This document shows positions 34,968 through 56,753 of a DNA stretch of 64,000 nucleotides, piece after piece (position 1 is the stretch's first letter; each line of letters opens with the position of its first letter). This DNA comes from an uncultured Actinomycetes bacterium. Its GTDB lineage: Bacteria > Actinomycetota > Acidimicrobiia > Acidimicrobiales > RAAP-2. The notes under the pieces were generated by a model. The model was given only the letters and a program-made list of their open reading frames with translations, was not told the origin of the DNA and made no database searches. The DNA is taken from the NCBI GenBank assembly GCA_903871335.1, contig CAIQGE010000010.1:1-64000 (forward strand), written 5' to 3'. The position numbers and the translations under genes were made by a program.

Positions 34968-37900
34968 CTAGCCCTCGGTGACAATGACGTTCGAAATGGC
35001 GTGCACGTCCGACAGTCCGCCCGTCGCGCCGGAAAATCCGAGACGCGACGTCGGCGCGATACTGAGATGAGTTCTCTGCAAGAGCTGCGTTCCGTCCACG
35101 TAGACGGTGATCGACGTGGCCGTCGTGACGACCGTCACACGACTGGCGACCGAGCCGAGCGCAAAGGGCAGTTGCGCGGTCGCTAACCACCGCAACTTCC
35201 CGTTCGCTCCCCCGTTCGAGATTCCGATGAAATTCGCACCGGGCGCACCCGCCTCGGCGTACTCCCCGAAGACCACCGCGTAGATGGGCTGCGTCGCCGG
35301 AGCAAATCCGATTCCCCACCCATTGGACCCAAGGAACGACGCCGACGTCTTGGGACCACCGACAAGAACAGCCATCCCGTCCGCACCCAAGCCGGGTGCG
35401 ACAGTGGGTGTGAAACTGACCGCCGCGTTGGAACTGCGATTGAGTGTGGGCGACCAGAGTGATCCCGCCACGTATTCGACATTCGGCGTCAGAGTGATCG
35501 TCGACGCCTTGATGGACGTCGAGCCATTTTTCTTCCAACCGGTCGCGGACGTGAGCGCCGAGACTTTCCCGGTCGCCGTGCCCGTCAAGGACACACTCTG
35601 AGGGGCACCGCCCAAGGCCGAGATCGTGACTCCCCCGTGGATGACACCTGGTGACGACGGCTGGACATTCAACACCACCGTGGTGCTGGCACCGGGGGCG
35701 ATGGTCTCCGGCAAAGCCGTCAGACCGAAGCTCGCACCGCTGCGCCCATTGGTCACGCCCGCGAGGCTGACGCCACTCCCGGAGGCGGCCGCCGACGACA
35801 TCGTCACCGCCCAGCTGTTGTTGTTCGTGAACGTCACCGGGACCGAGCGATACGAACCGACGGGGACCGAACCGAATGTCGACGGTAACGACGGCGTCAG
35901 TGTCACACTCGGTGCGGGACCGCCCACCGTCGTCCATACGTTGGAGATGAGGTGGTTGTCGTCGCCTTGACCCGTCGACCCACCGAAGCCCACCAACACT
36001 TGCGACGCGAGTTGCGGCGCGAAGTACGTAAAGGGCGTGTACGTGCCGTTGTCTTGTCGGACCAGATTGTTCGTGCCGTTGACGTACACGCTGATCGTGC
36101 CGTTCTTGACGGTGACCGTCACATGGAGTGGATTATCGAGCGCCCCGCCGGTGAAGTCGGGCAAGTTGGTAGTGGCGAGCCAGTTCATGTGACCGCCGCC
36201 TTGCGCGAGTCCATTCGTGATGCCAATAAAGCCGTTAATGCCCGCGCCCACCGGAGCGCCGATCTCGGGGTACTCCGAGATAACCACCGAAATTGCGTCC
36301 AAGCCGTTCACGCCCAAGTTGAACCCGGGGTCACCAATGGCGTTCGGCGACGTATCGGCGGCATTCGCCAAGATCAAGTCGCTCCCGTCGGCGCCGTTCC
36401 CATTGAGCGCGGTGCTGACGTAGGAGACAGAAAGACTGCTACTTGATTGGGGCACCGGCCAGAAGGACGTCCCGACTTGTTGTTCCATCAGTGGCGTCAA
36501 AGAGATCTGATTATCCGACAGCACCGCGGTGCCGTTGGCGGTCCACCCGTTGGACGACGACGGCGCGGGTAGCGCGTGCCCGTCTCCCGAGCCCGTTCCG
36601 GTGAACGACAACGCCACGGTAACTCCCGCGTCCGTCGTCACCGCCAGGGTCTGCTGGAAAATTCCCGCGGCGGAGGGTTGGAACGACACCGGAAAGGACA
36701 ATTCCGTACCCGGCGGAATCTGATCACCCACGGAGGGTGGGGCCTGAAGATTGAAAGCTCCGTGCACCGCGTCAGTGGCGAGGGGGTCCTTCGGGTAGGC
36801 CGTGACAACGTTGGTGATGGTCACCGTGGAGCCACCGGTGTTGGCAATGGTTACCGAGGAGTCCGCGTGATCGCCCACGGTCACGGTGCCGAAGGACAAC
36901 TCGGACGTGGACGTTTCGTGGTTGGGTCCAAAACTTGTCGTGAGGTTCGCCGGAGCTGCTCCGGATCCATTCAGAGAAACACTGACGGATTGACTTGATC
37001 CTCCCGCCGTCGGGTGAGCAACGAAGTTCAGCGACCGTGACGCGAGGCCGGTCGTCGTGGGCGCAAAGGTGGCCCGCACCGTGATGGAGGCGTCGGGTGC
37101 CAGTACCCCTTGCGCCGCGGGGAGACCACTAAGCGCAAAAGGTGATCCGCTCGTCGGAACGGAGTCCCAGGTCAGAGACTGCGCACCAAAATTTGCCAAA
37201 GTAAAGGCTTGTGGGACCGATGTCTTTCCGGTCGTCACGCCATTGAAGTCCACCGTCTTCGTCGAGGCGTAGAGGTAGCCCGTTGGCGACTGCGACGTAC
37301 CGCTGACCGGCAAATCAAACTCGCCGACGTTGCTGAAAACGGCGATGGTCCCGAGCTGACCACCCGGTGGTCCGGTCGTCGCGGGCGCGAAGGTGATCGC
37401 GACCTTCAGCGTGGCCCCCTTCGCCAGGTCGATGCCGTTGGTGGGAATCGGTGTGGCGACGCCATTAATAATGGGCACCGCGGTAAAGGCCGCCGACGTA
37501 TTGACAATCTTGGTGATCGTGATGGGCGTCGTCGTCACGCCCACCGCGGAGAGCGTCGTCGTCAGTGATGACGCGTGTCCCTGGATGGTCGCGGGAAAGT
37601 TAACCGGGGTCGCGTCGACGAGCGCGGGGGCGTGCAAGACGCCGAACCCGTAGACCGTGCCCGTCTTGGTGGCAACGAAAACCTTGTTGCTCCAGACGCC
37701 GGGCGGCGTGAACTTATTCGCCTGTCCAATGGACCATTGGCCAAGAAGTGTCAACCACTTCCCGTTCGGCACGGCGTTATAGGCCTGCAGGGTCGCGCCA
37801 TTACCGGTGAGATCAAGCGTGCGAATGATCCATACGACGCCACTGCCGACGGTTAATCCGTTTGACGTCACTACCGGACTCGACGTCCCGAAACTAAATT

Positions 37901-39383
37901 GCGCGGACGAAGGCTGACCATTCAGGAGCGTGATCGGGCCCGCCGTGGCGACTTGACTCATGACGGGCTGCGGACTGGTTCTCCCGGTGCTGTCGACGCG
38001 GTAGGCGTAGAAGTTTCCTTGTCCCGCATTGCCGAGTGACGCCGCGCCACCGTACGCGGTGGGCAGATAGATGTAGCCACCCGTCGCGGTGGGCAGCACC
38101 GCGGGCGTTGCCCACGTGCCACCGAATTGACCCAGTTTCCCAACCACCGCGTCGCCATTGCCGACACCTTGTTTGTATCCGCCCAACGCGTCGGCGTTGA
38201 GCAGATACACGTAACCCGACTTTCCGTCTTGGAAGACGGGATGCGGGACCGCCGTCGTACCGAATTGACTCGGCAGCACCACGGGAGATCCGGACCCGAA
38301 GTCGAGATCGTCAGTCGTGAGCAACTTCGCGTTGTACGGCATAAAGAAGTCCACCGGTTGCAACGCCGCCGGGTTCGCTGCACTGAGAAGAATCACTGAT
38401 TCGGGGAGCGAGCCGTTCTTATTGATCCAAGCAGACGCGGTCGTGGGTTGATTGGGACCATCGCCCCCGTTGCCGGTCGTGACCAGGATGTCGCCGTTGT
38501 ACGCGGACAGACCACCCCCGGACTGCCAGATACCGGAATTGCCCTCCGCATCGTCGACGGTGACGGGACTCCAAATGGTCTGGAGTGCACCTGCCGTCGA
38601 GACACCCGCGATGAACCCGGTATAGGGATCCTGGTCACAGTGCGCGCCAAAGGCTATGTACACACTGTTGTGCAAGAGAAGTAGACCCGGCCGTTGAATG
38701 ACGTTGTACGCAGTAAAGAGTCCCGACGCGCCCGCGTTGTTTTGCGCCTGACCCTGAATTTCGACCGGAAAATTGGCTCGTTCGCTGCCGTCCAAAGGAT
38801 TAACCGCATGCAGGTAGTACTGCGGAGCACCGAGGTCGTCGAGGGCCATCGACACAAAGAACATGGAATTCGTGGTGGGGTCAAATGTCGGTGTCGAAGT
38901 GATGCCCACGAACGGCGCGAGGTCGGGACAGGCCCAGGTGGTGGCCTCGTAATACGGCGTTCCGACCGACCTCGACCACTCGATCGCCCCGGTTGATGGA
39001 TTCAGCCCGTATACATTGTCCTGCTCGGTCGCGACGATCAAGACACCGTCGGCGACAAGGGGCTGGGCGTAGACCTGACCCACCACGGCGGGTTGCTTCC
39101 AGATTTGACCAAACTGCGACGAATCGGCGACGGTGGCGGGTGAAAGCTGCGACTGATCTCCGTACCAACCATCACGACTATCAGATCCGTGATTCGTGGG
39201 CGTCGTCGCGCCGGTAGAAGTTCCGGTGTCGTGGGATCGAACGATCGTACTGACCCGAGGGTGGCCACTCGCCGCTTGCGCAGACGTGGCGGCCAGCGAG
39301 AACGCGGTCAGCACTCCGAACGCCACGAGGCCGCGTGTCAGCGTGCGAGCACGGCCTATAGCCCCGCGTCGACTTGATCTCAT
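34968..39383 (-). CDS. Giant exported protein: PQQ-type propeller, ASH domains and two lectin-like modules
   Basis: A 1471-aa secreted protein. A signal peptide ends near residue 38 (SLAATSAQA). Residues about 70-600 resemble a PQQ-type beta-propeller with blades such as AQPLVADGVLIVATEQDNVYGLN and IGQANKFTPPGVWSNKVFVATKTGTVYGF. Three ASH/choice-of-anchor-D Ig-like domains (about 600-935) follow, then an L-type lectin-like module (about 940-1155), a fourth ASH domain and a second lectin-like module to the end. Both lectin modules finish with a LGF-GATG or VGFGGSTG turn and a HLISN/HAISN strand. ATG at 39383 is chosen; an ATG 21 nt upstream is possible. No anchor motif is seen. Carbohydrate or surface binding is inferred. 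Confidence 0.78.
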   Translation of the reverse strand: MRSSRRGAIGRARTLTRGLVAFGVLTAFSLAATSAQAASGHPRVSTIVRSHDTGTSTGATTPTNHGSDSRDGWYGDQSQLSPATVADSSQFGQIWKQPAVVGQVYAQPLVADGVLIVATEQDNVYGLNPSTGAIEWSRSVGTPYYEATTWACPDLAPFVGITSTPTFDPTTNSMFFVSMALDDLGAPQYYLHAVNPLDGSERANFPVEIQGQAQNNAGASGLFTAYNVIQRPGLLLLHNSVYIAFGAHCDQDPYTGFIAGVSTAGALQTIWSPVTVDDAEGNSGIWQSGGGLSAYNGDILVTTGNGGDGPNQPTTASAWINKNGSLPESVILLSAANPAALQPVDFFMPYNAKLLTTDDLDFGSGSPVVLPSQFGTTAVPHPVFQDGKSGYVYLLNADALGGYKQGVGNGDAVVGKLGQFGGTWATPAVLPTATGGYIYLPTAYGGAASLGNAGQGNFYAYRVDSTGRTSPQPVMSQVATAGPITLLNGQPSSAQFSFGTSSPVVTSNGLTVGSGVVWIIRTLDLTGNGATLQAYNAVPNGKWLTLLGQWSIGQANKFTPPGVWSNKVFVATKTGTVYGFGVLHAPALVDATPVNFPATIQGHASSLTTTLSAVGVTTTPITITKIVNTSAAFTAVPIINGVATPIPTNGIDLAKGATLKVAITFAPATTGPPGGQLGTIAVFSNVGEFDLPVSGTSQSPTGYLYASTKTVDFNGVTTGKTSVPQAFTLANFGAQSLTWDSVPTSGSPFALSGLPAAQGVLAPDASITVRATFAPTTTGLASRSLNFVAHPTAGGSSQSVSVSLNGSGAAPANLTTSFGPNHETSTSELSFGTVTVGDHADSSVTIANTGGSTVTITNVVTAYPKDPLATDAVHGAFNLQAPPSVGDQIPPGTELSFPVSFQPSAAGIFQQTLAVTTDAGVTVALSFTGTGSGDGHALPAPSSSNGWTANGTAVLSDNQISLTPLMEQQVGTSFWPVPQSSSSLSVSYVSTALNGNGADGSDLILANAADTSPNAIGDPGFNLGVNGLDAISVVISEYPEIGAPVGAGINGFIGITNGLAQGGGHMNWLATTNLPDFTGGALDNPLHVTVTVKNGTISVYVNGTNNLVRQDNGTYTPFTYFAPQLASQVLVGFGGSTGQGDDNHLISNVWTTVGGPAPSVTLTPSLPSTFGSVPVGSYRSVPVTFTNNNSWAVTMSSAAASGSGVSLAGVTNGRSGASFGLTALPETIAPGASTTVVLNVQPSSPGVIHGGVTISALGGAPQSVSLTGTATGKVSALTSATGWKKNGSTSIKASTITLTPNVEYVAGSLWSPTLNRSSNAAVSFTPTVAPGLGADGMAVLVGGPKTSASFLGSNGWGIGFAPATQPIYAVVFGEYAEAGAPGANFIGISNGGANGKLRWLATAQLPFALGSVASRVTVVTTATSITVYVDGTQLLQRTHLSIAPTSRLGFSGATGGLSDVHAISNVIVTEG

Positions 39384-39493
39384 GGGACCACTACCTCTCC
39401 GCATACCAGCGACATGATGCTAGAGACACAACGAGCGCCACGGTGATCACGTCGAAGGATTTCTCATGCTCGCCCCTGAAGGGCCATTTCATC

Positions 39494-42398: not shown

Positions 42399-44660
42399 CT
42401 AGAGCGTGGTGAAGTTCGCCGTCGCCGACGAAGGACTCACACCGGCGGCGTTCACGGCGCGAATGGTGAGGTGATACTTCGTCTTGGACGACAGGAAGTT
42501 CACCGTGATCACCGGTGACGCGGAGGCGGTGCCGGACGTCGTCGCCGTCTTCCACACACCCGGGGTCACGGCGTACTGGTAGCTCGTAATGACCGAGCCA
42601 CCGTTGTTCGACGGAGCGTGTACCAGGACCGTCGCCGAGGTCTTGCTCGGAGTGACTTTGGTGATCGACGGCGGCGTCGGTACGGTCGCGGGCGTGGCCG
42701 TGACGGCATTCGAGGGCACACCGCCGCCATTGGTGTTCGACGCCACGACGGTGAACGAATACGTCGTTCCGTTGGTCAATCCCGACACCACACAGGAAGT
42801 CGCCGATAGCTGGGCCGGGCTACAGGTCGCACCGCCGGGCGTGGCCGTGACGACGACGGAGGAAATGGCGGGCGTGCCATTGCTCGTGGGCGCGGTCCAC
42901 GACACGGTCGCGGTCTTGTTACCGGGAACAACCTTCACGTTCGTACTCGCACCCGGGACGGCGAACAGACTGGTCTCCGATGACGGGGAAGATGCCACGG
43001 AGTCACCGTTGATATTCGTGGCCTTCACCGTGAAGGTGTACGCCGTGTCGTTCGACAAACCGCTCACGGTGCAGTGAGTCGCTGTCGTCGTGCACGTGGC
43101 GCCACCCGGCGAAGCGGTCGCGGTGTAACCAGTGATCCGCTGACCTCCGGTCGCTGTTGGAGCGGTCCACGAGACAACGGCCGATTGGTTGTAGCCCGTC
43201 GCCGTAACGGAGGTAGGTGCACTCGGCACCGTCGTCGCGGAAATCGACATCATCTTGACGGCCTCACCCGTGGCGCTCACCGTCAAGAAGTAGCCGACGA
43301 AGGAGCACTCACCGAGGAGAGACGTCGTGCAAGATGCACCCGCGGCGTCGGAAAACTGGAAGGGCCCATACGCACTGGCGGGCAGCGGCGCGGTTACGCC
43401 CGCACTCCACGTGCCGGACGACTCGGTCCAAATGGCGGGCTTGAGACTGTCCTGCGAGCTGTCGTACACGGCACCATAGGCACCTGTGGCGACACAATTA
43501 CCCACCGACACACACGCCACCGAACCTGCTCCCGAATTCTGAGGGGTCTTTGCCGAGTTGGTGAATGCCCCCGACGGCAGCGCGAGAGCTTGTCCCTTCG
43601 ACCACGTTCCCGACGTCTCCGTCACGACGCTGGGAACAGAACCATTTCCCGTGACGTCATAGGCACCGGTCGCGACGCAGTTGCCGTCGGACGTGCACGC
43701 AAGTGCGTTCAGCGTTGGAAACGTACTGGACTTCGCGCTAGTTTGCGCCACGCTGCCCGCTGGTTGGCTAAGGGCCACCGGAGTGGACCAACCGGCACCA
43801 CTCAAGGTGGTGGCATCCCACTGGTACCCCGATTTCGCGAAGTAGGCGCCGACCGCAGTGCAATCCGTGGCACTCGAACACGACACGGCGCCCAGCCCGC
43901 TCTGTCCACCCGTCGTGGTCGATTCCGCGGGCGTCGAGGACGAAGCGCTCACGGTTCCCGCGGTCCACTGACCCGTGGAGAGCACCTCGGTGAGACCCAC
44001 GTTGTAGTTATCACTCGACGAACCAATCGCCACCGTACCCACGGCCACGCACGACTGGTCGGCGGGACAACTCACCGCCGACAATCCCGATTGCGACGCG
44101 GCGCTCTGCGCCGCGGTCTTGGTCGTGCTGGCGTACGCCCCGCTCGGCAGAGGTAGAGGCTTGGGCGTTCCCCACACTCCGCTGACCTCGGAGATCGCGA
44201 AGGGCAACTTCGATCCCAACGTGCCCGCTACGAAACTTCCTACCGCGACGCAGTTGCCCGCGCTGGAACACGAGACCGCATCCAAGAGGGCCTGTTCCGT
44301 GCTCGACGATCCACTCGGCGCGACCACAATCACCGGTGTCGCCCACACGCCGTTCGTTTCGACGACCAGTATCGGCCGAATCACGTTGGACGCTGTCGCG
44401 TCGGGAAAATTCGCGCCAACCGCCACGCAGTTGCCGATCGAGACGCACGACTGGTCCGCGAGAAGATTCCACGTGTTCACACCCGCACCGGGAGTCGTCG
44501 GCAGAACGACGGGGCCACCCCAGATCACTGCACCGGCGGGCACCGTCAAGGCCAGAACGCTGGCAATCAGTGTTGCCGACACCGCGGCGCGCCCAACGTG
44601 GACACGACGTCGCGCGCGATTCCAAGAAGCACCCAACATGGAGAACCAAACTTTCGTCAC
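42399..44660 (-). CDS. Secreted protein with seven Cys-x5-Cys repeats and three Fn3 domains
   Basis: A 753-aa exported protein. Basic N-terminus and hydrophobic core (TLIASVLALTVPAGAV) form a signal peptide. Seven repeats of about 50-65 residues follow, with cores such as LLDAVSCSSAGNCVAVGSF, GLSAVSCPADQSCVAVGT and TLNALACTSDGNCVATGAY; six have Cys-x5-Cys and the seventh Cys-x7-Cys. Each repeat continues with a TE-x-G-x-W strand, so a seven-bladed beta-propeller with one disulfide per blade is likely. Three Fn3 domains (residues about 470-753) close the chain. The GTG at 44660 has AAGGG 7 nt upstream; a start at 44726 is possible. Paralogue at 48846. Confidence 0.78.
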   Translation of the reverse strand: MTKVWFSMLGASWNRARRRVHVGRAAVSATLIASVLALTVPAGAVIWGGPVVLPTTPGAGVNTWNLLADQSCVSIGNCVAVGANFPDATASNVIRPILVVETNGVWATPVIVVAPSGSSSTEQALLDAVSCSSAGNCVAVGSFVAGTLGSKLPFAISEVSGVWGTPKPLPLPSGAYASTTKTAAQSAASQSGLSAVSCPADQSCVAVGTVAIGSSSDNYNVGLTEVLSTGQWTAGTVSASSSTPAESTTTGGQSGLGAVSCSSATDCTAVGAYFAKSGYQWDATTLSGAGWSTPVALSQPAGSVAQTSAKSSTFPTLNALACTSDGNCVATGAYDVTGNGSVPSVVTETSGTWSKGQALALPSGAFTNSAKTPQNSGAGSVACVSVGNCVATGAYGAVYDSSQDSLKPAIWTESSGTWSAGVTAPLPASAYGPFQFSDAAGASCTTSLLGECSFVGYFLTVSATGEAVKMMSISATTVPSAPTSVTATGYNQSAVVSWTAPTATGGQRITGYTATASPGGATCTTTATHCTVSGLSNDTAYTFTVKATNINGDSVASSPSSETSLFAVPGASTNVKVVPGNKTATVSWTAPTSNGTPAISSVVVTATPGGATCSPAQLSATSCVVSGLTNGTTYSFTVVASNTNGGGVPSNAVTATPATVPTPPSITKVTPSKTSATVLVHAPSNNGGSVITSYQYAVTPGVWKTATTSGTASASPVITVNFLSSKTKYHLTIRAVNAAGVSPSSATANFTTL

Positions 44661-44808
44661 AAGTGAGCCCTTCGACTCGCGGTCATCCTTGACGAGCCGC
44701 GTGAGTTTGTCAAGGACACTCATCATGAATTCGAATGAATTCTTGGCGACACGGTGTCACAGGACCGAAGACCCTACAAGTTTCCCGACGAATGTTCTGC
44801 CCTCTCGC

Positions 44809-44814
44809 TACGTT
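44809..44814 (+). promoter_or_regulatory. -10-like hexamer of the dipeptidase gene
   Basis: TACGTT ends 6 nt before the ATG at 44821; no ribosome binding site intervenes. Leaderless expression is likely. Confidence 0.4.
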
Positions 44815-44820
44815 GCGATC

Positions 44821-45819
44821 ATGAATTCATTGAGTCGCGGTCCCTGGATCGACTTGCACGCTCATCCGGGGCGCTGCTTCCTCGAAGGCAACACTCCCGA
44901 AAGTCCGTGGCGCGCACTGCTGGGTGACAGCGTGTGTGGTGAGGTCCTGAAGAACGTCCCCACCCCACCATTCGCGGCGATCAGCGTCTCGTCGGTCAGT
45001 GATCTTGCGGTCCTCGGAGTGACTCCCGACGGGGGGCTCGCCGCGGTTCGTCCCTTCGAAGAAGGTGAGGCGTACCGGGATCATCGACGCCAAGTTGACG
45101 GCGTCGTGTCCATGCTCGCGACCGAGAGAATTGCTCTCGCGCGTTGCGCCGCGGATATCACTCGCGCACACGAATCCGGAGAACTCGTTGCGATTCTCTC
45201 GTGCGAAGGTGCCGACTTCGCGGAGTCACTCTTTGACAGCGTCTTCGAGTTGCGCGACCTCGGTGTGCGCATCGTGACTCTCGTGCACTACCGAGCCAAT
45301 GCTTTCGCTGACCCGCAGACGGAACCCGAGAGACATGGTGGGTTGTCCGACGACGGACGACGACTCGTGCACGCCCTCAACCATCAGAACATCCTGATCG
45401 ACCTCGCCCACGCCACTCTCGCGACGACTCGCGACGTGCTCGAGATTTCGACCGCCCCGATCGTCATCTCTCACACTCATCTGCAGCCACGAAATGCTGA
45501 TCACGCCCGCTTGATCTCGAGAGAACACGCTCGCATCGTCGCGGACGCCGGGGGGCTCATAGGAGCGTGGCCGTCAGGTCTGACGAGTACGACGTTGGAC
45601 GATTTCGTGAGTGAAGTACTGCGTTTGGTGGACACAGTCGGAGTCGAACACGTGGCGGTGGGCACCGACATGGACGCCAACTATCGGCCCGTTCTCGATC
45701 ACTATGACCAGTTCGGCGACGTGAACGACCGACTAGTTGCTCGCGGACTCCATCAGCACGAGGTCGAAAGAATCCTCGGAACGAATGTTCTCGAACTCTT
45801 TCGCGCCGTGTGTGGTTAG
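44821..45819 (+). CDS. Membrane dipeptidase-like peptidase (M19, renal dipeptidase family)
   Basis: A 332-aa TIM-barrel metallopeptidase. Metal ligands expected for M19 are seen: WIDLHAHPG (His-x-His), the bridging Glu in ILSCEGAD, His in IDLAHATLAT and His in VISHTHLQPRN, with the substrate-site Asp in VGTDMDANY. No signal peptide is present, so it is probably cytoplasmic. The ATG at 44821 is used because a long upstream in-frame extension (from 44119) runs antisense through the neighbouring gene. It likely cleaves dipeptides, perhaps with non-standard or D-residues. Its stop is 4 nt from the convergent lectin gene. Confidence 0.9.
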   Translation: MNSLSRGPWIDLHAHPGRCFLEGNTPESPWRALLGDSVCGEVLKNVPTPPFAAISVSSVSDLAVLGVTPDGGLAAVRPFEEGEAYRDHRRQVDGVVSMLATERIALARCAADITRAHESGELVAILSCEGADFAESLFDSVFELRDLGVRIVTLVHYRANAFADPQTEPERHGGLSDDGRRLVHALNHQNILIDLAHATLATTRDVLEISTAPIVISHTHLQPRNADHARLISREHARIVADAGGLIGAWPSGLTSTTLDDFVSEVLRLVDTVGVEHVAVGTDMDANYRPVLDHYDQFGDVNDRLVARGLHQHEVERILGTNVLELFRAVCG

Positions 45820-45823
45820 AGAG

Positions 45824-46630
45824 TTAGAGACGAATCGTCCGACGACGCTGTGAGAGCGCCAACAGGCCGAGCAGCACTGCCGCCATCGCGCCCAGAACAA
45901 TCACACCGTTCGCGCCACCGGCCGAGAGGTCGGGAGTGGAGGGATTGAGAACGAATGACGAAATGATGTGATCGTTGGTTAATCCACCGGTGGCGCCGGT
46001 GAAGCCGAGCAGCACCGACGACGGGAGCGTGATCGCGTTCGACAACACCGTTGTGCCGTCCAAGATCAAGGTCAGGACGCCACCCGTGTACGTCACTTCC
46101 ACCGAGTGCGTTCCGTGCAACGAGGTGCTGAGCGCATGGGTCGCCGCCCATGTCTTCGACGTGTTCAGACCACCGGTGAGAAAACCGACGAAGTTGTTGG
46201 AAGGGTCATTCGAGTTCTGATACGTGTCGAGGGCGACGCCCACGCCGGTCACACCAGGGTGTCCTCCACCCGCTGTGAAGCCCAAACCACCGCCATTGGA
46301 ACCCGTGGTGGCGGTGGTGTTGTGAGCCGGATCGGCCAACGCGAGCGTGATGCCATCAGCGCCGCCGCTCGTGCCCATGTTCACCTGGAAGTTCACGTCC
46401 AGACCATTCGTCGACACGGGCGCGTTCAGCCACACGGCTGAGGACTGGAAGGTCTGTCCCTGCTGCGTCAGCACCAGAGAGCTGCCGGACACCGACGCAT
46501 TGCCGTTGAGGGTCCAGCTGCTGTCGGGGGGCCAGGTAGTTGCCGCTCCGGCGGGAACGGCCACCAGCCCCACGGACAGAGCGGTCAGAAGAGCAACACC
46601 CATGGTGCGCGTCGCGAATCGGCGGGACAT
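45824..46630 (-). CDS. Exported L-type lectin-domain protein with C-terminal anchor
   Basis: A 268-aa protein. A signal peptide (TALSVGLVAVPAGA) precedes one L-type (legume-like) lectin domain at about 30-225: SWTLNGNASVSGSSLVLTQ, VNFQVNMGTSGGADGITLALAD with the Asp of the calcium/sugar site, GVGVALDTYQNS and LGFTGATGGLTNDHIISSF. The C-terminus GANGVIVLGAMAAVLLGLLAL is a membrane helix followed by SQRRRTIRL. The ATG at 46630 has AAAGGA upstream. It probably displays a carbohydrate-binding domain on the surface. The lectin module is shared with the protein at 34968-39383. Confidence 0.82.
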   Translation of the reverse strand: MSRRFATRTMGVALLTALSVGLVAVPAGAATTWPPDSSWTLNGNASVSGSSLVLTQQGQTFQSSAVWLNAPVSTNGLDVNFQVNMGTSGGADGITLALADPAHNTTATTGSNGGGLGFTAGGGHPGVTGVGVALDTYQNSNDPSNNFVGFLTGGLNTSKTWAATHALSTSLHGTHSVEVTYTGGVLTLILDGTTVLSNAITLPSSVLLGFTGATGGLTNDHIISSFVLNPSTPDLSAGGANGVIVLGAMAAVLLGLLALSQRRRTIRL

Positions 46631-46733
46631 CACGGTTTTCCTTTGCGAATTCAGTCACTTCGCCTAATGCGAAGAAAGTTTTTCGACCTTATCAGTAATC
46701 CACCCTTGAAGCCAGTCGGCCTGCTAAGTCGCC

Positions 46734-48656
46734 TCAATACGGGCCTGGACCGTTCAAACTGGCGTTGCAGGAGCGTGGGTCCCACGGCTGGAGGGGCTGG
46801 GCGAGCTGCGTGGGCTTGCCGAGTCCATTGTCACCCGAGACGGACGGCGGATCGTAGACCGTCGTCGGAGTCACGGTGGTGGGCGTCCCCTTCACGGTCG
46901 TGGTCGTCACGGGCTTGGGCGCCAGTGGCACCAACGAAATGTCCGTGCCCGTTTGCACCGTCACCGTGGCTCCGGGCGTGACCTCGGACGGGTTGTAACC
47001 AAGAACGGCGGGACCCTGAATCTGACGCAGGACCGCTTCGGCCTGGGCTTGGGCCGGAGACGTCCAGTTCCCATTCGCCGGTGGCGGCGAGCCTCCGTAC
47101 CAAACGACGGTCTGTGTCTCACGCGGATTCACCGGAGTGCGGTCACCGGTCGAGATCACGTGGAATCCTCGAGTCGTGAGGTCGGTAGCGACCTTCTTGG
47201 CTTGCCCCGCGACCCCGGAACCATTCTCCACGGTGACCGCGAAACTCCCCGGTGCGGGCAAGGTCGTGTAGTTGAACGTGCTTTGAGTGGGCTTGACGCC
47301 GAAGAGCTTGTCGATGGCCGCGTAGCCACCCGGCTGCAGGGGGAACTCGATATCTCCGTAGTAGTAACCCTTGTAGAGGTAGCTCCCGACCTCGACAGTG
47401 ACCACGGGGAACGTGAACTGCGGCACGTTCGTAATGGACGTGGACGCGAATGCTTCGGCGAGGGCGACCATGTGCCCTTCGCTAAATGAGTTGTCGACGG
47501 TCAGACTCGGCAATACCGACGTGGCGATGGACTGGTCCGTCAACGGATCGCCGATGCCTCTCGCCGAAACTTGGCTCGCGAGCACACGAAGGAACTCGTG
47601 GGTGCGACGGATGCGCGCAATGTCGGACTGCGCCTCCTGCGGCCACGTTGAGTGCGCAAAGGGGTACCCCTTCGGTTGGTACTGCAGGTGACGAGCGCGA
47701 ACCACCTGAAGAGCGTGGTAGCCGTTTAGGAGATAACAGCCGGGGCGACGAATGTTGAGCCCCGACTCTGCGTCAAAGACCGGCATCGGGAAGTACATGT
47801 GCGTGCCGCCGAGCGAGTCCACCACTTTGGCGAACGTGTCGAAGTTGAGCTCAACGAAGTGATTGATCGGAATGGCAAAATCTTCTTCGATGGCGGCTGC
47901 GAGTTGCGTGGGTCCCTGATAGAGGGCCGCGTCAATCTTGTTGGCACCTTCCTTGCGCGCGTTTGGGATGAAGGTGTCACGCGGGATCGACAAGAGCGAC
48001 ACCGTGTGCGCACCCAAGTCCAGGTGCACGATCATGACGATGTCGCTATTGACACCCGTCACACCTTGCGAACACAGTCCGTACGCCGGATTCGCCTTCA
48101 TCCCGGGTGCACAGCGCTCCGTGGAGCCGACGAGCAATATGTTCTCTTTCGCCCCGGCGGTCTGGAGGTGTCCCACGTCAGTGTGGTGCACCAAGGAACC
48201 AAGGTAGAAATACTCCGCGACCGCCGCGGTCACTACCAGGACCACCATGACGACGCTCAACAACATGATGCGTCGCGCCCAAAAACGTCGACGGCTCGGA
48301 CGACGTCGGGGTGTGGGTCGACGTGGTGGGCCACCGCCCGCGGGGACCATTCCGGGATCTCCTCGTCGCGCAACAGGTGCCGATCCCCGGGGACTTGCCA
48401 ATTGCCGGGATTGATTCATCGGCGGAGGAGCATCGCGGCGTGGCGGTCCCTGGCGGTTGGAGGTGGTCCGCTGCGGTTGGTCGCCGCGATATGCGCGGGG
48501 GTCGTTACCCGGACGGCCAGCACCGGAGTTCGGCATCCTCGACGAACCCGTGGGCGGACGAGCCGCTCCCCGCGGAGGTTCGTAACTCCCTCGACCGACA
48601 TCACCCGAGGTTGGAGGTGTGTAGCCACCGAGGTTCGGCGGATCCGACGAAACCAT
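46734..48656 (-). CDS. LytR-CpsA-Psr (LCP) family wall-polymer ligase
   Basis: A 640-aa type II membrane protein. Residues 1-125 are a cytoplasmic Pro/Arg/Gly-rich tail, residues about 130-152 one helix (IMLLSVVMVVLVVTAAVAEYFYL), and about 165-415 the LCP catalytic domain (NSDIVMIVHLDLGAHTVSLLSIPRDTFI with the conserved Arg, then ANKIDAAL, and QVVRARHLQY). A LytR_C domain follows at about 490-570 (VTVENGSGVAGQAKKVATDLTTRGFHV), and a Pro/Thr-rich end. LCP proteins join secondary polymers such as arabinogalactan or teichoic acids to peptidoglycan. ATG at 48656 is used; AAGG lies 9 nt upstream. Confidence 0.9.
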   Translation of the reverse strand: MVSSDPPNLGGYTPPTSGDVGRGSYEPPRGAARPPTGSSRMPNSGAGRPGNDPRAYRGDQPQRTTSNRQGPPRRDAPPPMNQSRQLASPRGSAPVARRGDPGMVPAGGGPPRRPTPRRRPSRRRFWARRIMLLSVVMVVLVVTAAVAEYFYLGSLVHHTDVGHLQTAGAKENILLVGSTERCAPGMKANPAYGLCSQGVTGVNSDIVMIVHLDLGAHTVSLLSIPRDTFIPNARKEGANKIDAALYQGPTQLAAAIEEDFAIPINHFVELNFDTFAKVVDSLGGTHMYFPMPVFDAESGLNIRRPGCYLLNGYHALQVVRARHLQYQPKGYPFAHSTWPQEAQSDIARIRRTHEFLRVLASQVSARGIGDPLTDQSIATSVLPSLTVDNSFSEGHMVALAEAFASTSITNVPQFTFPVVTVEVGSYLYKGYYYGDIEFPLQPGGYAAIDKLFGVKPTQSTFNYTTLPAPGSFAVTVENGSGVAGQAKKVATDLTTRGFHVISTGDRTPVNPRETQTVVWYGGSPPPANGNWTSPAQAQAEAVLRQIQGPAVLGYNPSEVTPGATVTVQTGTDISLVPLAPKPVTTTTVKGTPTTVTPTTVYDPPSVSGDNGLGKPTQLAQPLQPWDPRSCNASLNGPGPY

Positions 48657-48845
48657 GTGTATTGACCTTACGTTCGTGTGGAGGCGACACGATCGTGACG
48701 ACCTGCCGAAATCCCACCACCACGCTAGACCCCACGGACGCAATACGAGAGGGTTTGGTCGAGTGGTGACCAAGGATGCACGTCGTGCGACGGAACGGCG
48801 ACCGGATATTCGTGAAAGGGACTGGTAGGGTCCGAATTCACCGCC

Positions 48846-50768
48846 ATGGTACGCCCGCTCTCCCCGCTAGATTCCGCACTTTTCGGCCGCGCTCTGCGAC
48901 ACGGACCGACATTCTCCCCGTGGCGGGCGCATCGCTGGTGGGCGGCGGGGTTGCTGTCGTCACTGTCGATGCTGATCCCACTGGCGGCGAATGCCAGCGT
49001 CGCTCCTTCTCCGCTGACGTTTCCCCTTCCGGCCACTTCGGTGACGAGTGGTCAAGACGTCAACGTCAACTCGGTGAGCTGTGGGAGCGTGAATACGTGC
49101 GTGTTCGTGGGCACGGCGGTGGTCAAGACAGCCACGTCGACTCGTCACGATGTGCCCCTGGTCCTTACTGAGGTCGACGGTGTGCTCACGGCGCCCCTGC
49201 TCGTCACACCACCGACCGACGCGATCATGAGCTCGAAGAGTGGGCGGAGCGAACGAACGGGTCTGGACGCCGTGTCCTGTGTGGCGACCGGTGATTGTGT
49301 TGCGGTTGGCACGTACGCAACGGCGAGTGGTTTCGCTCCCTTCGTGGCGACAGAGTCCTCGGGCATCTGGTCGCTCGGCAAGCGACTCCCTGTGCCGACG
49401 AATGCCGTCAGCTCGAACAATGCGGACGCCCTCGGCCTCTCGTGTCTCACTTTGTCATCCTGTATCGCGACTGGCTCGTATCGCGTCGCCGGGGAGTCCA
49501 CCGTACCGTTCATAAGTTCCAACGCCTCGGGTTCATGGCGTTCCATCGCGGCACCTCTGCCGAGTGACGCGGACACGAACTCTCAAGTCGCCTTCCTCGA
49601 CGCGGTCTCCTGCTGGACACCCGGCGCGTGCGTCGCGGTGGGGAGCTACACCGCCGGAGTCAATCAAAGCGATCTCGTCGCATCGCTGAACCGAGGCGTC
49701 TGGACGACCAGCGCGGTGTCGGGTCCCACGACCGGTGCCCTCCCGTCCAGTGAGGCCAATGCACTCAACGCCGTGAGTTGTTGGGCTCCCTGGTCGTGCG
49801 CGGCCGTGGGTCAGTACGGCACCACGAGCGGCGTCGGTAGCACCGTGAGTTTCAGTGTGGGTGGTGCGAACTCGGCCACCTGGCCGAGTTCGCAATGGGT
49901 CAGTACGCCCACCGTGTCTCCGACCCCTCCCTCGTCTCTTAGCACGCTGTTGACGGTCTCGTGTGTCGGGGCTACGTCCTGCGTCGCGGGAGGCTCTTAC
50001 GGGACACCGACGTTGCAGCACGCCGATGTCGTGACATCGCTCTCGAGTCGTCAAGCGAGTGCGGCGACTCTGCCGACCTCAGCGGCGACCTCACAATCGT
50101 CGGCCCTGACCAGTGACGTCTGCTTCACCCCGACCGCGTGCCTCGTCACCGGCACGTACACGCAGAGCGGAACGGGAAACGTTGAGGGCCATGTCAGCAT
50201 TCCTCAAACGCCGCCACTTCCGCCGACGTCCGTGACGGTGGTGGCGGGTAACGAGAGTGCGCGGGTCAGCTGGCATGCACCGACCTACGACGGTTTGTCG
50301 CCGGTGACGCAGTATCGCGTCACCGCGACCCCCGGCAATTCCACCTGCGTCAGTTCTCCGGCGCTGGATTCGTGCACCGTGCTCGGGCTCACCAATGGCG
50401 TCAGCTATCGCGTCAGTGTGGTGGCGAGCAACGTGGTGGGAGACTCCGCACCGTCGGCGTCGTCGTCGAACTTCACGCCAGCCACCGTGCCGAGCGCTCC
50501 GGTCATCACGTCGATCACCCCACTCATCGGAGGTTGGCGGTTGACCTTCACCGCGCCGAGCACGACGGGTGGCGCCGTGATTCGCACGTACGAATACTCG
50601 TTGACGATGGGTGCCACCTGGCACACTCGGCCCAATGGCACGACGGGTTCACCATTGAGCGTGGCCGGTCTGCAGCGGCACCATCGGTATCGGGTCATGA
50701 TTCGGGCCATCAACGCTCGTGGCGCGTCGTCTCACTCCAATACGGTGACGGTCACCACAAAGTCATAG
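48846..50768 (+). CDS. Secreted protein with seven Cys-x5-Cys repeats and two Fn3 domains
   Basis: A 640-aa exported protein and paralogue of that at 42399. A signal peptide ends near residue 50 (LIPLAANA). The seven repeats have cores such as NVNSVSCGSVNTCVFVGT, GLDAVSCVATGDCVAVGTY, FLDAVSCWTPGACVAVGSY and ALNAVSCWAPWSCAAVGQY; each contains Cys-x5-Cys. A seven-bladed propeller is inferred. Two Fn3 domains (about 455-640) end the chain. It is divergent from the LCP gene. Cell-surface or matrix function is inferred; no enzymatic motif is visible. Confidence 0.78.
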   Translation: MVRPLSPLDSALFGRALRHGPTFSPWRAHRWWAAGLLSSLSMLIPLAANASVAPSPLTFPLPATSVTSGQDVNVNSVSCGSVNTCVFVGTAVVKTATSTRHDVPLVLTEVDGVLTAPLLVTPPTDAIMSSKSGRSERTGLDAVSCVATGDCVAVGTYATASGFAPFVATESSGIWSLGKRLPVPTNAVSSNNADALGLSCLTLSSCIATGSYRVAGESTVPFISSNASGSWRSIAAPLPSDADTNSQVAFLDAVSCWTPGACVAVGSYTAGVNQSDLVASLNRGVWTTSAVSGPTTGALPSSEANALNAVSCWAPWSCAAVGQYGTTSGVGSTVSFSVGGANSATWPSSQWVSTPTVSPTPPSSLSTLLTVSCVGATSCVAGGSYGTPTLQHADVVTSLSSRQASAATLPTSAATSQSSALTSDVCFTPTACLVTGTYTQSGTGNVEGHVSIPQTPPLPPTSVTVVAGNESARVSWHAPTYDGLSPVTQYRVTATPGNSTCVSSPALDSCTVLGLTNGVSYRVSVVASNVVGDSAPSASSSNFTPATVPSAPVITSITPLIGGWRLTFTAPSTTGGAVIRTYEYSLTMGATWHTRPNGTTGSPLSVAGLQRHHRYRVMIRAINARGASSHSNTVTVTTKS

Positions 50769-53596: not shown

Positions 53597-53669
53597 GAGA
53601 CGCCCTTCTCCGGCCGTGGGAAGAGCCCTACGATCGGAAGATCGTGGCCGAGTCCCCGGGGAGAAGAAG

Positions 53670-56600
53670 ATGAGTCGTTTGTCCGCGCATCACCGTACGG
53701 GAAGCCGTCCGTGGACCGCGACCGTCGTCGCCACCGCCGCCCTCGCCAGTCTTGCCACCAGCGTGCCCGCCATCGGCATTGCTTCGTCGGCGGGCGCCGC
53801 TGAGGTGCGCGTCATCGTGGACCACGCGAGCCTCGCCGGTGTCCACGTCACGTCAGCGCCTCGCACGACGTCCTTCAGCGTGGTTTTACGTCCTCAGCAC
53901 GCCACACAACTAGCCGCATTCGTCGCGAGCATCAGTGATCCCCATTCGAGCAACTACCGCCACTTCCTCTCGCGAGGGGCGTACGCCGCACAGTTCGGTC
54001 CCTCGGCGTCAACGGTCTCGGCGATGAAGTCCTACTTCTCGCGCTACGGACTTCACACCCAGTCGGGTGGCGACGGTTCATTGGTGTGGCGCGTGAGCGG
54101 ACTCACGACACACGTGGCCTCCGCTTTCGCCGCCCAGGTCGTGGGCGTGCGCGATAGTTCGGGTGCGGTCCTCAGCGAACTTCGTGGGAATGGCACGTTG
54201 CCCTCGTCGCTCGCCCAGCACGTCAGTGGCATCGTCGGCTTGAGCTCGTCGCGACTGTTCCACTCACTCGCCGTCACGCACGCTTCGGCCCACGACACCG
54301 CGGGTACGAATGAACAAACCTGTTCGGACGCCGCCGCGACGGCGACGTCGCAAGGTGCGTATCTGCCAAGCCAGCAGGCGTCGCTCTACGGCCTCGACAC
54401 TCAGTGGGCCAAGGGTATCGACGGCGTGGGTGCCACCATTGGCATCTACGAACTCTCGGGCTATTCCTCGAGTGACGTGTCGACCTATCTCTCGTGTTAC
54501 AACGTGCCGAACCACCTGCAGCCGAGCGTGATGGTGGACGGTGGTCCCGCTCTCGGGGACACCACCGTCAACACGGAAAGTGAAGCCGACCTCGACATCG
54601 AAGAAGCCGCCGTGTTGGCTCCTGGCGCCCACATCGTCGTCTACGAAGCACCCAACTCGGCGAGCGGCAGCCTCGATGGTTTCGCTCGCATGGCGAGTGA
54701 CGACACGGCCTCGGTCATTACGACCTCGTGGGGCGAATGCGAAGCGCAGCTCGGCTCGTCGGGCATGAGCGCCGAGAACACGGTGTTCCAACAGATGGCG
54801 GCCCAAGGTCAAACAGTCGCCGCGGCCGCCGGTGATGACGGATCGACCGACTGCACGACGGCGTCGGGTTCACCCGTCAATCAGCTGGCGGTCGATGATC
54901 CCGCGTCACAGCCGATGGTGATTGGTGTCGGGGGACTCGCCGTGACCTCGATCTCGCCCCTGAGCCAAGCCGTGTGGAACAGCCGCTTCCCGTCCCCGGG
55001 CGTCAACGACGGCGGTAGTGCGGGTACGCAAGGTGGCGGAGCCGGTGGCATCTCGTCGTACTGGACCCGCCCGTCCTGGCAGTCCGGGGTCGGCATCGCG
55101 TCCACGCAGGTCTCGCGACTGGTACCCGACCTCTCAGTGATGGCCGACCCGGCGTACGGCTTCTTGGAGTACACGCCCGCGGGACATCGCACGAATGTTT
55201 GGACTGCCGTGGGAGGTACGTCCATTGGTTCTCCCATCGTGGCCGCGCTCCTCGCGGTGGCGTCTCAAGCGTGCGGCGGTGGACGACTCGGACTGGTCAC
55301 GCCCACCTTGTACGCGATGGCCGCGGCGAACACTGGTTTCAACGACGTCACCGTGGGTGGCAATAACATCTTCCGTTCCGCCGGTTCCTACCACGCCGGT
55401 GTCGGTTACGACATGGCGTCCGGACTCGGGAGCCCGGACGCGGGGAGTTTCATCTCCAGTCTGTGCGCCCGCGTACCCGCCAGTGCCACTCTCAACTCCA
55501 CGACATCCGGCGCCATTGACAGCGCACCGGCCACCATCACGATCACCCTCGACAATGGTTCTGCTTCCCCGATGGTCAACGCGCCCGCGCCCTTGATGAC
55601 GGCGACCGAAGCACACGGCACTCCGGTGGTCACGGCAGCCACGTCGACGACCAACGCCAGTGGACAAGTCACCTATAACGTCACGAGTAACACTCCGGGG
55701 CTCGTTCATCTGACCCTGTCGAGCGGAGGAGTCGCGCTTCTCACGACATCGGTCGCGGTCACGACCAACGTGACCGCGACGCCGCTCGCCACGACCGTCA
55801 ACGCGTTGGGCGCGCTCTCAGGCACCCTTCGCGCCGCGAATGAAGGCAGTGACACGGTGGTCGCCGGCGTGACCAGCGGCGGAAAGGTCGTCGTCGCTTC
55901 GACAGCGTCGCCCACTGTCGTGACCCTCGCCGTCAAGACCGCCACCGGCGCGCCCGCCCTCACCTGTACCGCGAGCGCGTGCGACCTCGCGGTCGACGTC
56001 AACGGTGCGGTCGTCCTCGTGACCGACGTCCTCGGAGCCACGCCCAAGGTCACGACGCTCTCGTCCAACACGCCCCTGGCCAACGGCATCACCGCCAACA
56101 CGTTGTCACTTTCTCTCACGCCCACTGGTGGAATAGCCATCTTCGCGATCCGCTCGGGTCACGTGGTCGCGGTGACGCTGAAGAAAGCGAGTGCAAAGCC
56201 CGTGGGGATCGATCTGAGCGCGGCCCGAGGTCTCGGTGCCGCCACCGGTGGCACCGCCAGTGCCGTGAGTGCGAGTGGTACGCCCGAGGTGGCGGTGACG
56301 ATCTCTGGACACGTCTGGCTCCTCACGACTCTGAGCGCGAGCGCTGACCGCGATCTCGTTAGCGCCAGTGCGCTGTCCACCTCGACGAACGGCACGGTGA
56401 TCGCGAGTCCGCAGATCGTCAACGACAATGGTGTCCTCGACGTCGCGGCGATCACGTCGAAGAACTCACTGGTCCTATTCACGACCACGGCGTCGTCTTC
56501 GACGGCGACCGTCACGTCATCGGTGTTGACGACGTCGGTGTCGGCCGTTGCCTTCACTCCCGGCGCCAACGGGATGGACCTACTCGCACGAACCACGGGC

Positions 56601-56753
56601 GGAAGTCTGCGGCTGTTGGCGAGAACTCCGAGTTGGACCGTCCTCACGGCGAACACGCTGACCGGGACCTCCTTCGCGGGCGTGACGCTGGTGCCGGGTG
56701 GCTCGAGTGGACTCGTTCTGAACGTCAACGGCCCGACGTTGGTGCGCGCCTGA
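53670..56753 (+). CDS. Secreted sedolisin (S53) peptidase with Ig and propeller-like C-terminal region
   Basis: A 1027-aa exported endopeptidase. Signal peptide at 1-43, pro-kumamolisin activation domain at about 60-215 (HATQLAAFVASISDPHSSNY), catalytic domain at about 240-615. The acid pair is Glu305/Asp309 in ESEADLDIE and the nucleophile is Ser518 in GGTSIGSP; the calcium-site region appears near ASGLGSPDAG. S53 enzymes work at low pH. Residues about 620-725 form a Big_1-like Ig domain and about 730-1027 a region of repeated strands such as GHVVAVTL, GHVWLLTTLSAS and GSLRLLART. ATG 53670 has GGGGAGAAG upstream. It probably digests external protein; downstream gene may be cotranscribed. Confidence 0.9.
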   Translation: MSRLSAHHRTGSRPWTATVVATAALASLATSVPAIGIASSAGAAEVRVIVDHASLAGVHVTSAPRTTSFSVVLRPQHATQLAAFVASISDPHSSNYRHFLSRGAYAAQFGPSASTVSAMKSYFSRYGLHTQSGGDGSLVWRVSGLTTHVASAFAAQVVGVRDSSGAVLSELRGNGTLPSSLAQHVSGIVGLSSSRLFHSLAVTHASAHDTAGTNEQTCSDAAATATSQGAYLPSQQASLYGLDTQWAKGIDGVGATIGIYELSGYSSSDVSTYLSCYNVPNHLQPSVMVDGGPALGDTTVNTESEADLDIEEAAVLAPGAHIVVYEAPNSASGSLDGFARMASDDTASVITTSWGECEAQLGSSGMSAENTVFQQMAAQGQTVAAAAGDDGSTDCTTASGSPVNQLAVDDPASQPMVIGVGGLAVTSISPLSQAVWNSRFPSPGVNDGGSAGTQGGGAGGISSYWTRPSWQSGVGIASTQVSRLVPDLSVMADPAYGFLEYTPAGHRTNVWTAVGGTSIGSPIVAALLAVASQACGGGRLGLVTPTLYAMAAANTGFNDVTVGGNNIFRSAGSYHAGVGYDMASGLGSPDAGSFISSLCARVPASATLNSTTSGAIDSAPATITITLDNGSASPMVNAPAPLMTATEAHGTPVVTAATSTTNASGQVTYNVTSNTPGLVHLTLSSGGVALLTTSVAVTTNVTATPLATTVNALGALSGTLRAANEGSDTVVAGVTSGGKVVVASTASPTVVTLAVKTATGAPALTCTASACDLAVDVNGAVVLVTDVLGATPKVTTLSSNTPLANGITANTLSLSLTPTGGIAIFAIRSGHVVAVTLKKASAKPVGIDLSAARGLGAATGGTASAVSASGTPEVAVTISGHVWLLTTLSASADRDLVSASALSTSTNGTVIASPQIVNDNGVLDVAAITSKNSLVLFTTTASSSTATVTSSVLTTSVSAVAFTPGANGMDLLARTTGGSLRLLARTPSWTVLTANTLTGTSFAGVTLVPGGSSGLVLNVNGPTLVRA

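What the first reader, a model, noticed from the sequence alone, without database searches (positions are those of the whole stretch)
42399..50768. Twin secreted proteins with seven Cys-x5-Cys repeats: likely disulfide-clamped seven-bladed propellers
Two paralogues (42399-44660 minus, 48846-50768 plus) each contain exactly seven repeats of about 50-65 residues with the core (L)-x-A-V-S-C-x5-C-x-A-V-G-x-Y/F, the last repeat of the first being C-x7-C. Seven repeats with a TE-x-G-x-W strand each suit a seven-bladed beta-propeller where every blade is stapled by a disulfide. They are followed by three and two Fn3 domains. The repeat count is read directly; the propeller fold is inference. The two genes flank the lectin and LCP genes, so this may be one surface system.
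Basis: partly seen in the sequence, partly recalled or inferred. Interest (0 to 1): 0.68.

Follow-up and report, generated by a model that had tools for sequence, protein, structure and literature searches.

The report
Secreted propellers stapled by disulfides
Two secreted proteins of an uncultured peat- and lake-type actinobacterium are predicted to fold into seven-bladed rings in which every blade carries its own cysteine pair, and they belong to a widespread but uncatalogued family whose rings have seven, eight or twice seven blades.

Summary
Both genes encode exported proteins with exactly seven C-x5-C repeats (the last of the first is C-x7-C), followed by three and two Fn3 domains. AlphaFold gives the first a confident propeller (pLDDT 84, pTM 0.88). 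The second is weaker (74, 0.64). Both hit the seven-bladed propeller of CylK by fold, and neither hits a solved propeller by sequence. Independent sequence evidence agrees. The N-terminus of each domain carries the missing fourth strand of blade 7 (velcro closure). Repeat numbers in relatives cluster at 7, 8 and about 14. Of 1275 cysteines in the repeat regions of 69 relatives, 1253 sit in such pairs, and one protein has an odd number. The genome encodes VKOR and DsbA. No Pfam, NCBIfam or PDB entry covers the family, found here only in Actinomycetota (about 12 members in this genome). Corrections: TE-x-G-x-W is not in every blade; the twins are distant paralogues; blade number is 7 or 8 across the family. 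The LCP link recurs (an adjacent propeller gene in 6 of 20 further genomes of the genus); the lectin link does not. Function is inferred: a stapled surface-ligand-binding scaffold with variable top-face loops. New variant of a known kind.

The parts
42399..44660 (-). propeller protein 1 (P0001), GTG start as given; more likely start ATG 44639; signal peptide + 7-blade domain + 3 Fn3
43227..44531 (-). seven-bladed propeller domain of protein 1 (residues 44-478)
   Evidence: AlphaFold pLDDT 83.7, pTM 0.88; Foldseek 7roo E 6e-12
44481..44531 (-). N-terminal strand AVIWGGPVVLPTT that completes blade 7 (velcro)
   Evidence: same motif as the W...PLP strand of blades 1-6; alignments A1, A2
44409..44462 (-). 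blade 1 Cys hairpin C72-x5-C78
44232..44285 (-). blade 2 Cys hairpin C131-x5-C137
44031..44084 (-). blade 3 Cys hairpin C198-x5-C204
43842..43895 (-). blade 4 Cys hairpin C261-x5-C267
43659..43712 (-). blade 5 Cys hairpin C322-x5-C328
43476..43529 (-). blade 6 Cys hairpin C383-x5-C389
43287..43346 (-). blade 7 Cys hairpin C444-x7-C452
42402..43223 (-). three Fn3 domains of protein 1; the first two carry their own Cys pair (C523/C530, C613/C623)
   Evidence: PF00041 E 1.5e-28, three stretches
48846..50768 (+). propeller protein 2 (P0002): signal peptide + 7-blade domain + 2 Fn3
48996..50210 (+). seven-bladed propeller domain of protein 2 (residues 51-455)
   Evidence: AlphaFold of residues 51-640 pLDDT 74.3, pTM 0.64; Foldseek 7roo E 1e-8
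48996..49043 (+). N-terminal strand SPLTFPLPATS that completes blade 7 (velcro)
49065..49118 (+). blade 1 Cys hairpin C79-x5-C85
49263..49316 (+). blade 2 Cys hairpin C145-x5-C151
49428..49481 (+). blade 3 Cys hairpin C200-x5-C206
49596..49649 (+). blade 4 Cys hairpin C256-x5-C262
49764..49817 (+). blade 5 Cys hairpin C312-x5-C318
49947..50000 (+). blade 6 Cys hairpin C373-x5-C379
50106..50159 (+). blade 7 Cys hairpin C426-x5-C432
50220..50765 (+). two Fn3 domains of protein 2; the first has C501/C510
   Evidence: PF00041 E 8.8e-18, two stretches
46734..48773 (-). LCP-family glycopolymer transferase, neighbour; an adjacent propeller gene recurs in other genomes of the genus
   Evidence: PF03816
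45824..46633 (-). L-type lectin domain protein, neighbour; found in only 3 of 41 genomes of the genus
   Evidence: PF18483

Best explanation
Each gene makes an exported protein whose N-terminal domain closes into a seven-bladed beta-propeller. In every blade, strands A (LxAVSC) and B (CxAVGxY) form a tight hairpin locked by its own disulfide. The last blade is completed by the N-terminal strand (velcro closure). The seven staples fix the frame. The loops on the opposite face (B-C and D-A) vary in length and sequence and most likely form a binding surface for a cell-wall glycan or another surface ligand, held away from the cell by the Fn3 domains. Shown: the repeats, the cysteine pairing pattern, the family, and the ring by model plus repeat-number evidence. 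Inferred: that the disulfides are formed, which face binds, and the wall or surface ligand.
For: Fold: model of P0001, Foldseek hits to seven-bladed CylK for both proteins (CylK is seven-bladed). Closure: an N-terminal D-strand motif with blade 7 ending after strand C in P0001, P0002 and the minimal relative L015, which is nothing but a signal peptide and seven repeats. Ring size: 69 complete relatives peak at 7, 8 and 14 repeats. Disulfides: all 14 Cys invariant in the 14-row alignment; 1253 of 1275 Cys in pairs and one odd protein of 69; the C-xN-C loop is 5 residues in 691 of 728 blades; VKOR and DsbA encoded. Conserved frame and variable face: A-B loop length sd 0.35 against 3.6 and 4.3 for the other two segments; P0001 and its orthologue are 52% identical in the A-B hairpins and 34% elsewhere. 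Surface role: signal peptides, Fn3, fast divergence (46-48% between orthologues against 62-91% for most neighbouring genes), and adjacency to the LCP gene in 6 of 20 further genomes.
Against: The P0002 model is weak in blades 5-7. AlphaFold versions have disagreed on blade number in repetitive propellers (PMC9218822). No coordinates were available to measure S-S distances. No ligand, binding residue or expression data exist. Most LCP-bearing genomes sampled (14 of 20) have no propeller gene next to the LCP gene.
Confidence: 0.72

Rival explanations
1. The repeats form an open beta-solenoid or a chain of separate hairpins, and seven is incidental.
For: Tandem repeats of 50-65 residues without sequence homology to any solved propeller.
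Against: Repeat numbers are not spread evenly but cluster at 7, 8 and about 14; the domain ends are complementary; the model is a confident globular domain with pTM 0.88 and the best fold match is a seven-bladed ring.
Confidence: 0.04
2. The cysteines hold a metal or an iron-sulfur centre rather than disulfides.
For: Weak ferredoxin-profile hits (PF12838 E 1.4e-4 for L015, below its cut-off; PF13237 for P0001).
Against: These hits are below curated cut-offs and come from cysteine spacing. The proteins are exported and carry no clear Tat signal. Each pair is local to one hairpin, about 56 residues from the next. No His or Asp ligand is conserved beside the Cys. The genome has VKOR and DsbA.
Confidence: 0.04
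3. The propeller is an enzyme (lyase, sialidase-like hydrolase, CylK-like alkylating enzyme) with its active site on the top face or in the channel.
For: Nearest folds are enzymes: CylK, sialidases, a rhamnose-glucuronate lyase.
Against: No Asp-box in either protein. Across alignment A2 the invariant columns are Cys, Gly and Trp, with no conserved acid, His, Arg or Tyr set. Sequence identity to those enzymes is about 10%. No catalytic companion domain is present (Pfam finds only Fn3).
Confidence: 0.15
4. The propellers are protein-protein scaffolds (for example of an envelope complex with the LCP enzyme) rather than glycan binders.
For: LCP adjacency recurs; Fn3 and propellers are common protein-binding modules (general knowledge).
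Against: No partner is identified; most paralogues in the genome lie on other contigs away from this LCP gene.
Confidence: 0.3

Closest known systems
CylK beta-propeller domain (PDB 7roo, 7ron; PMC8916777)
   Same: Seven-bladed propeller; best Foldseek match of the P0001 model (E 6e-12, TM 0.63) and best propeller enzyme match of the P0002 model (E 1e-8).
   Different: About 10% identity; CylK is an alkylating enzyme fused to a Ca-binding domain and has blade-bridging calcium sites. Its main text mentions no disulfides.
PfCyRPA, six-bladed propeller of Plasmodium (PMC5349852)
   Same: Secreted non-enzymatic propeller with sequential disulfides, one per blade, in five of six blades.
   Different: Six blades, none in the velcro blade, eukaryotic, no sequence relation. 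Here every blade has the pair, the velcro blade included.
Asp-box, VCBS and WD40 propeller superclusters (PMC2716378, PMC8023676, PMC9218822)
   Same: Four-stranded blades, velcro closure, blade-number variation, ongoing blade amplification.
   Different: None of their Pfam models is found and the Asp-box is absent. The A-B loop here is a C-x5-C staple instead of an Asp-rich metal loop.
Fibronectin type III domains (PF00041)
   Same: C-terminal domains match well above cut-off.
   Different: Nothing unusual, except that most carry their own Cys pair.

Membership tests
beta-propeller fold | repeated four-stranded antiparallel blades | tested here: met
   strand pattern of both models
beta-propeller fold | closed ring with velcro closure | tested here: met
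   by model and Foldseek, by complementary domain ends and quantised repeat numbers; no experimental structure
disulfide-stapled blades | both Cys on one hairpin within bonding reach | tested here: inconclusive
   strand limits put them opposite or one residue off, and pairing conservation is near complete, but distances could not be measured and no chemistry is known
Asp-box propellers | S/T-x-D-x-G-x-x-W/F hairpin in the C-D loop | tested here: not met
   none in P0001 or P0002; 42 of 738 blades family-wide with a loose pattern
WD40 / Kelch / VCBS / other Pfam propellers | match to a Pfam model above cut-off | tested here: not met
PfCyRPA-like | sequence relation to a solved chain | tested here: not met
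   profile search of the PDB finds nothing at E 10
CylK-like enzymes | N-terminal Ca-binding domain, catalytic Arg and Tyr | tested here: not met
   no such domain; no conserved Arg or Tyr column
Fn3 | PF00041 above gathering score | tested here: met
sortase-anchored wall proteins | C-terminal LPxTG-like motif and membrane span | tested here: not met
   P0001 and P0002 end right after Fn3; some relatives (L039, L045) have one

The most novel reading that the evidence does not exclude
An uncatalogued, Actinomycetota-restricted propeller superfamily whose founding unit is a blade carrying its own A-B-loop disulfide. Because each blade is locked by itself, blades can be duplicated or lost freely, giving 7-, 8- and double-ring forms in one lineage, and the family serves as a fast-diversifying set of extracellular binding proteins tied to wall-glycopolymer attachment.
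Probability: 0.35. Interest if true: 0.65.

Novelty: new variant of a known kind. Interest (0 to 1): 0.47.

Why it matters
A repeat family present in many Actinomycetota genomes (25 of 148 sampled in the class, about 12 members in this 2.2 Mb genome) has no Pfam, NCBIfam or PDB entry, so the repeat domain of these proteins cannot be recognised by those libraries. If the staples are real, this is a natural example of a propeller whose blades are each covalently locked. It bears on how propellers gain and lose blades, since members with 7 and 8 blades and blades up to 96% alike exist side by side, and it offers a rigid scaffold with variable loops for engineering. It also points to an unstudied component of the cell surface in uncultured peat and lake actinobacteria.

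Tried and rejected
Viral contigs, phages and plasmids: no relatives. PDB by sequence and by profile: nothing in the repeat region. Pfam on P0001, P0002 and about 20 relatives and NCBIfam on the alignment members: no propeller model above cut-off; scattered Fer4, Big_13 and WD40 hits are below cut-offs. The idea that the two genes are recent twins was dropped: each has a clear orthologue only in genome G006, and they are not each other's nearest relatives. The idea that lectin and propellers form a fixed system was dropped. A reading of the TExxGxW strand as an Asp-box was tested and failed. Paper searches found no description of the family. Regex repeat counts sometimes included Fn3 Cys pairs (L001, L007, L022, L039, L045, L073); these were corrected by hand.
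Full report
WHAT IS THERE. The two ORFs are as described. Each has a signal peptide, a repeat domain of about 400-435 residues and C-terminal Fn3 domains: three in protein 1, two in protein 2. Each repeat domain contains exactly 14 cysteines in seven C-x5-C pairs (C-x7-C in the last of protein 1) and no other cysteine; shuffled sequences give 0.1 motifs on average. The likely start of protein 1 is ATG 44639.

FOLD. I built a 14-row alignment of seven-repeat domains, in which all 14 Cys are invariant. AlphaFold2 on protein 1 (residues 44-478) gave pLDDT 83.7 and pTM 0.88 with a repeating pattern of long A, B and C strands and a short D strand. Protein 2 with its Fn3 domains gave pLDDT 74.3 and pTM 0.64, good for blades 1-4 and weaker for 5-7. 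Foldseek finds the seven-bladed CylK propeller first for protein 1 (E 6e-12, TM 0.63) and third for protein 2, behind two entries of the receptor ROS1. The coordinates are not released by the tool, so disulfide distances were not measured. From the strand limits, each Cys pair lies on the two strands of one tight hairpin, opposite each other or one residue off.

INDEPENDENT EVIDENCE FOR A CLOSED RING. First, the N-terminus of each domain (AVIWGGPVVLPTT; SPLTFPLPATS) repeats the W...PLP strand that ends every other blade, and blade 7 stops after strand C: a velcro closure. The smallest relative, L015 in the same genome, is a signal peptide plus seven repeats, beginning with strand D and ending with strand C. 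Second, repeat numbers are quantised. Among 69 complete relatives the raw counts were 28 with eight, 20 with seven, 7 with fourteen, and few others. Several exceptions are explained by Fn3 pairs counted in error (L039, L040, L045, true count 8), a repeat missed by the motif (L004, 7) or gaps the length of two or more repeats (L066, L070). One partial protein has 21 (L067) and one has 16 (L053). A few proteins (10, 12, 13, 15 repeats) remain unexplained. A solenoid would not be expected to prefer 7, 8 and 14.

DISULFIDES. In the 69 relatives, 1253 of 1275 cysteines in the repeat region are in close pairs, and only one protein has an odd number. The spacing is five residues in 691 of 728 blades. 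The organism encodes VKOR (E 1e-27) and DsbA (E 2.6e-39). The rival idea of metal or Fe-S binding rests only on ferredoxin-profile hits below cut-off. Formation of the bonds is therefore very likely but not shown.

FAMILY. No Pfam or NCBIfam model and no PDB chain matches the repeat region. One genome-collection scan found 37 loci, all in Actinomycetota MAGs labelled Acidimicrobiaceae, Solirubrobacterales, Thermoleophilia, Streptosporangiaceae and unplaced Actinomycetes. Profile searches found matches in 25 of 148 genomes of the class and 21 of 297 of the phylum at a stricter limit. No search was run in other phyla apart from that collection scan. Viral contigs, phages and plasmids gave none. 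The host genome has about 12 members. Within-protein blade identity ranges from 23% to 57%, with single pairs up to 96% in L103, so blade amplification seems to be still going on, as is known for other propeller lineages (PMC9218822, PMC6805158).

NEIGHBOURHOOD. Genome G006 shares the whole region; there the propellers are 46-48% identical, the lectin 58%, the solute-binding protein 62%, the LCP protein 68%, and most other genes 74-91%. The M19 dipeptidase gene is missing there. Across the genus, the LCP protein is present in 23 of 41 sampled genomes and the lectin in 3. In 20 further genomes with the LCP gene, 6 have an eight-bladed member of the family next to it, in the position of protein 1 (four) or divergent like protein 2 (two). 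With a few members per 2 Mb genome, chance adjacency would be about 1-2% per genome (my estimate; shared descent makes the cases non-independent). So an LCP-propeller link is supported and a lectin link is not.

MECHANISM. The A-B hairpin is constant (loop length sd 0.35), while the segments holding the B-C and D-A loops vary (sd 3.6 and 4.3), and protein 1 and its orthologue are 52% identical in the hairpins against 34% elsewhere. In propellers B-C and D-A loops form one face and A-B and C-D loops the other (general knowledge of the fold). I therefore propose a frame stapled along one face and a variable binding face on the other, displayed by Fn3 spacers, most likely binding a wall glycan or surface partner. 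The fold I hold at about 0.93, the disulfides at about 0.9, the binding role at about 0.45 for a glycan and 0.3 for a protein partner.

KNOWN OR NEW. Disulfide-bearing blades are known: PfCyRPA has one in five of six blades (PMC5349852). Seven-bladed extracellular propellers are common. What appears unreported in the papers I could search is a bacterial family in which every blade, the velcro blade included, has the staple in the A-B loop, with 7, 8 or double rings. I file it as a new variant of a known kind.

Noticed in passing
window 34968-39404 (-): A 1478-residue protein with HYDIN/ASH-type Ig domains, a weak PQQ/BamB-like stretch and a C-terminal lectin domain similar to the neighbouring lectin at 45824-46633.
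   Followed up: no
window 53616-56753 (+): Protein with a pro-kumamolisin activation domain (S53 peptidase propeptide) in 1045 residues, followed at 56842-59463 by another Fn3-bearing protein.
   Followed up: no
L120, L123, L125, L127, L137, L138: Eight-bladed members of the family next to the LCP orthologue in six other genomes of the genus; L120 and L125 carry a C-terminal Fn3-like domain.
   Followed up: yes
L058 3827-7351, L059 2912-6574: 14-repeat double propellers followed by a second repeat type with a GYWLA...DGGVFAFGDA pattern, probably another propeller family.
   Followed up: no
L039, L040, L045: Eight-repeat relatives end in a LAATGF-like sorting signal and a membrane span, so some members are probably wall-anchored; the host genome of the window has four sortases.
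   Followed up: partly
L047, L092, L095, L103: Proteins with unusually alike blades (means 41-57%, one pair 96%), signs of recent blade amplification.
   Followed up: partly
window 42402-43223 and 50220-50765: All Fn3 domains except the last of each protein carry a Cys pair of their own (C523/C530, C613/C623; C501/C510).
   Followed up: no
window 44560-45819 (+): An M19-type dipeptidase gene lies between propeller 1 and the lectin; it is absent from the otherwise collinear G006 locus.
   Followed up: no
host genome G000:C1:12702-13304 and G000:C10:153242-153616: DsbA-like and VKOR genes of the host, the expected machinery for disulfide formation in exported proteins.
   Followed up: yes
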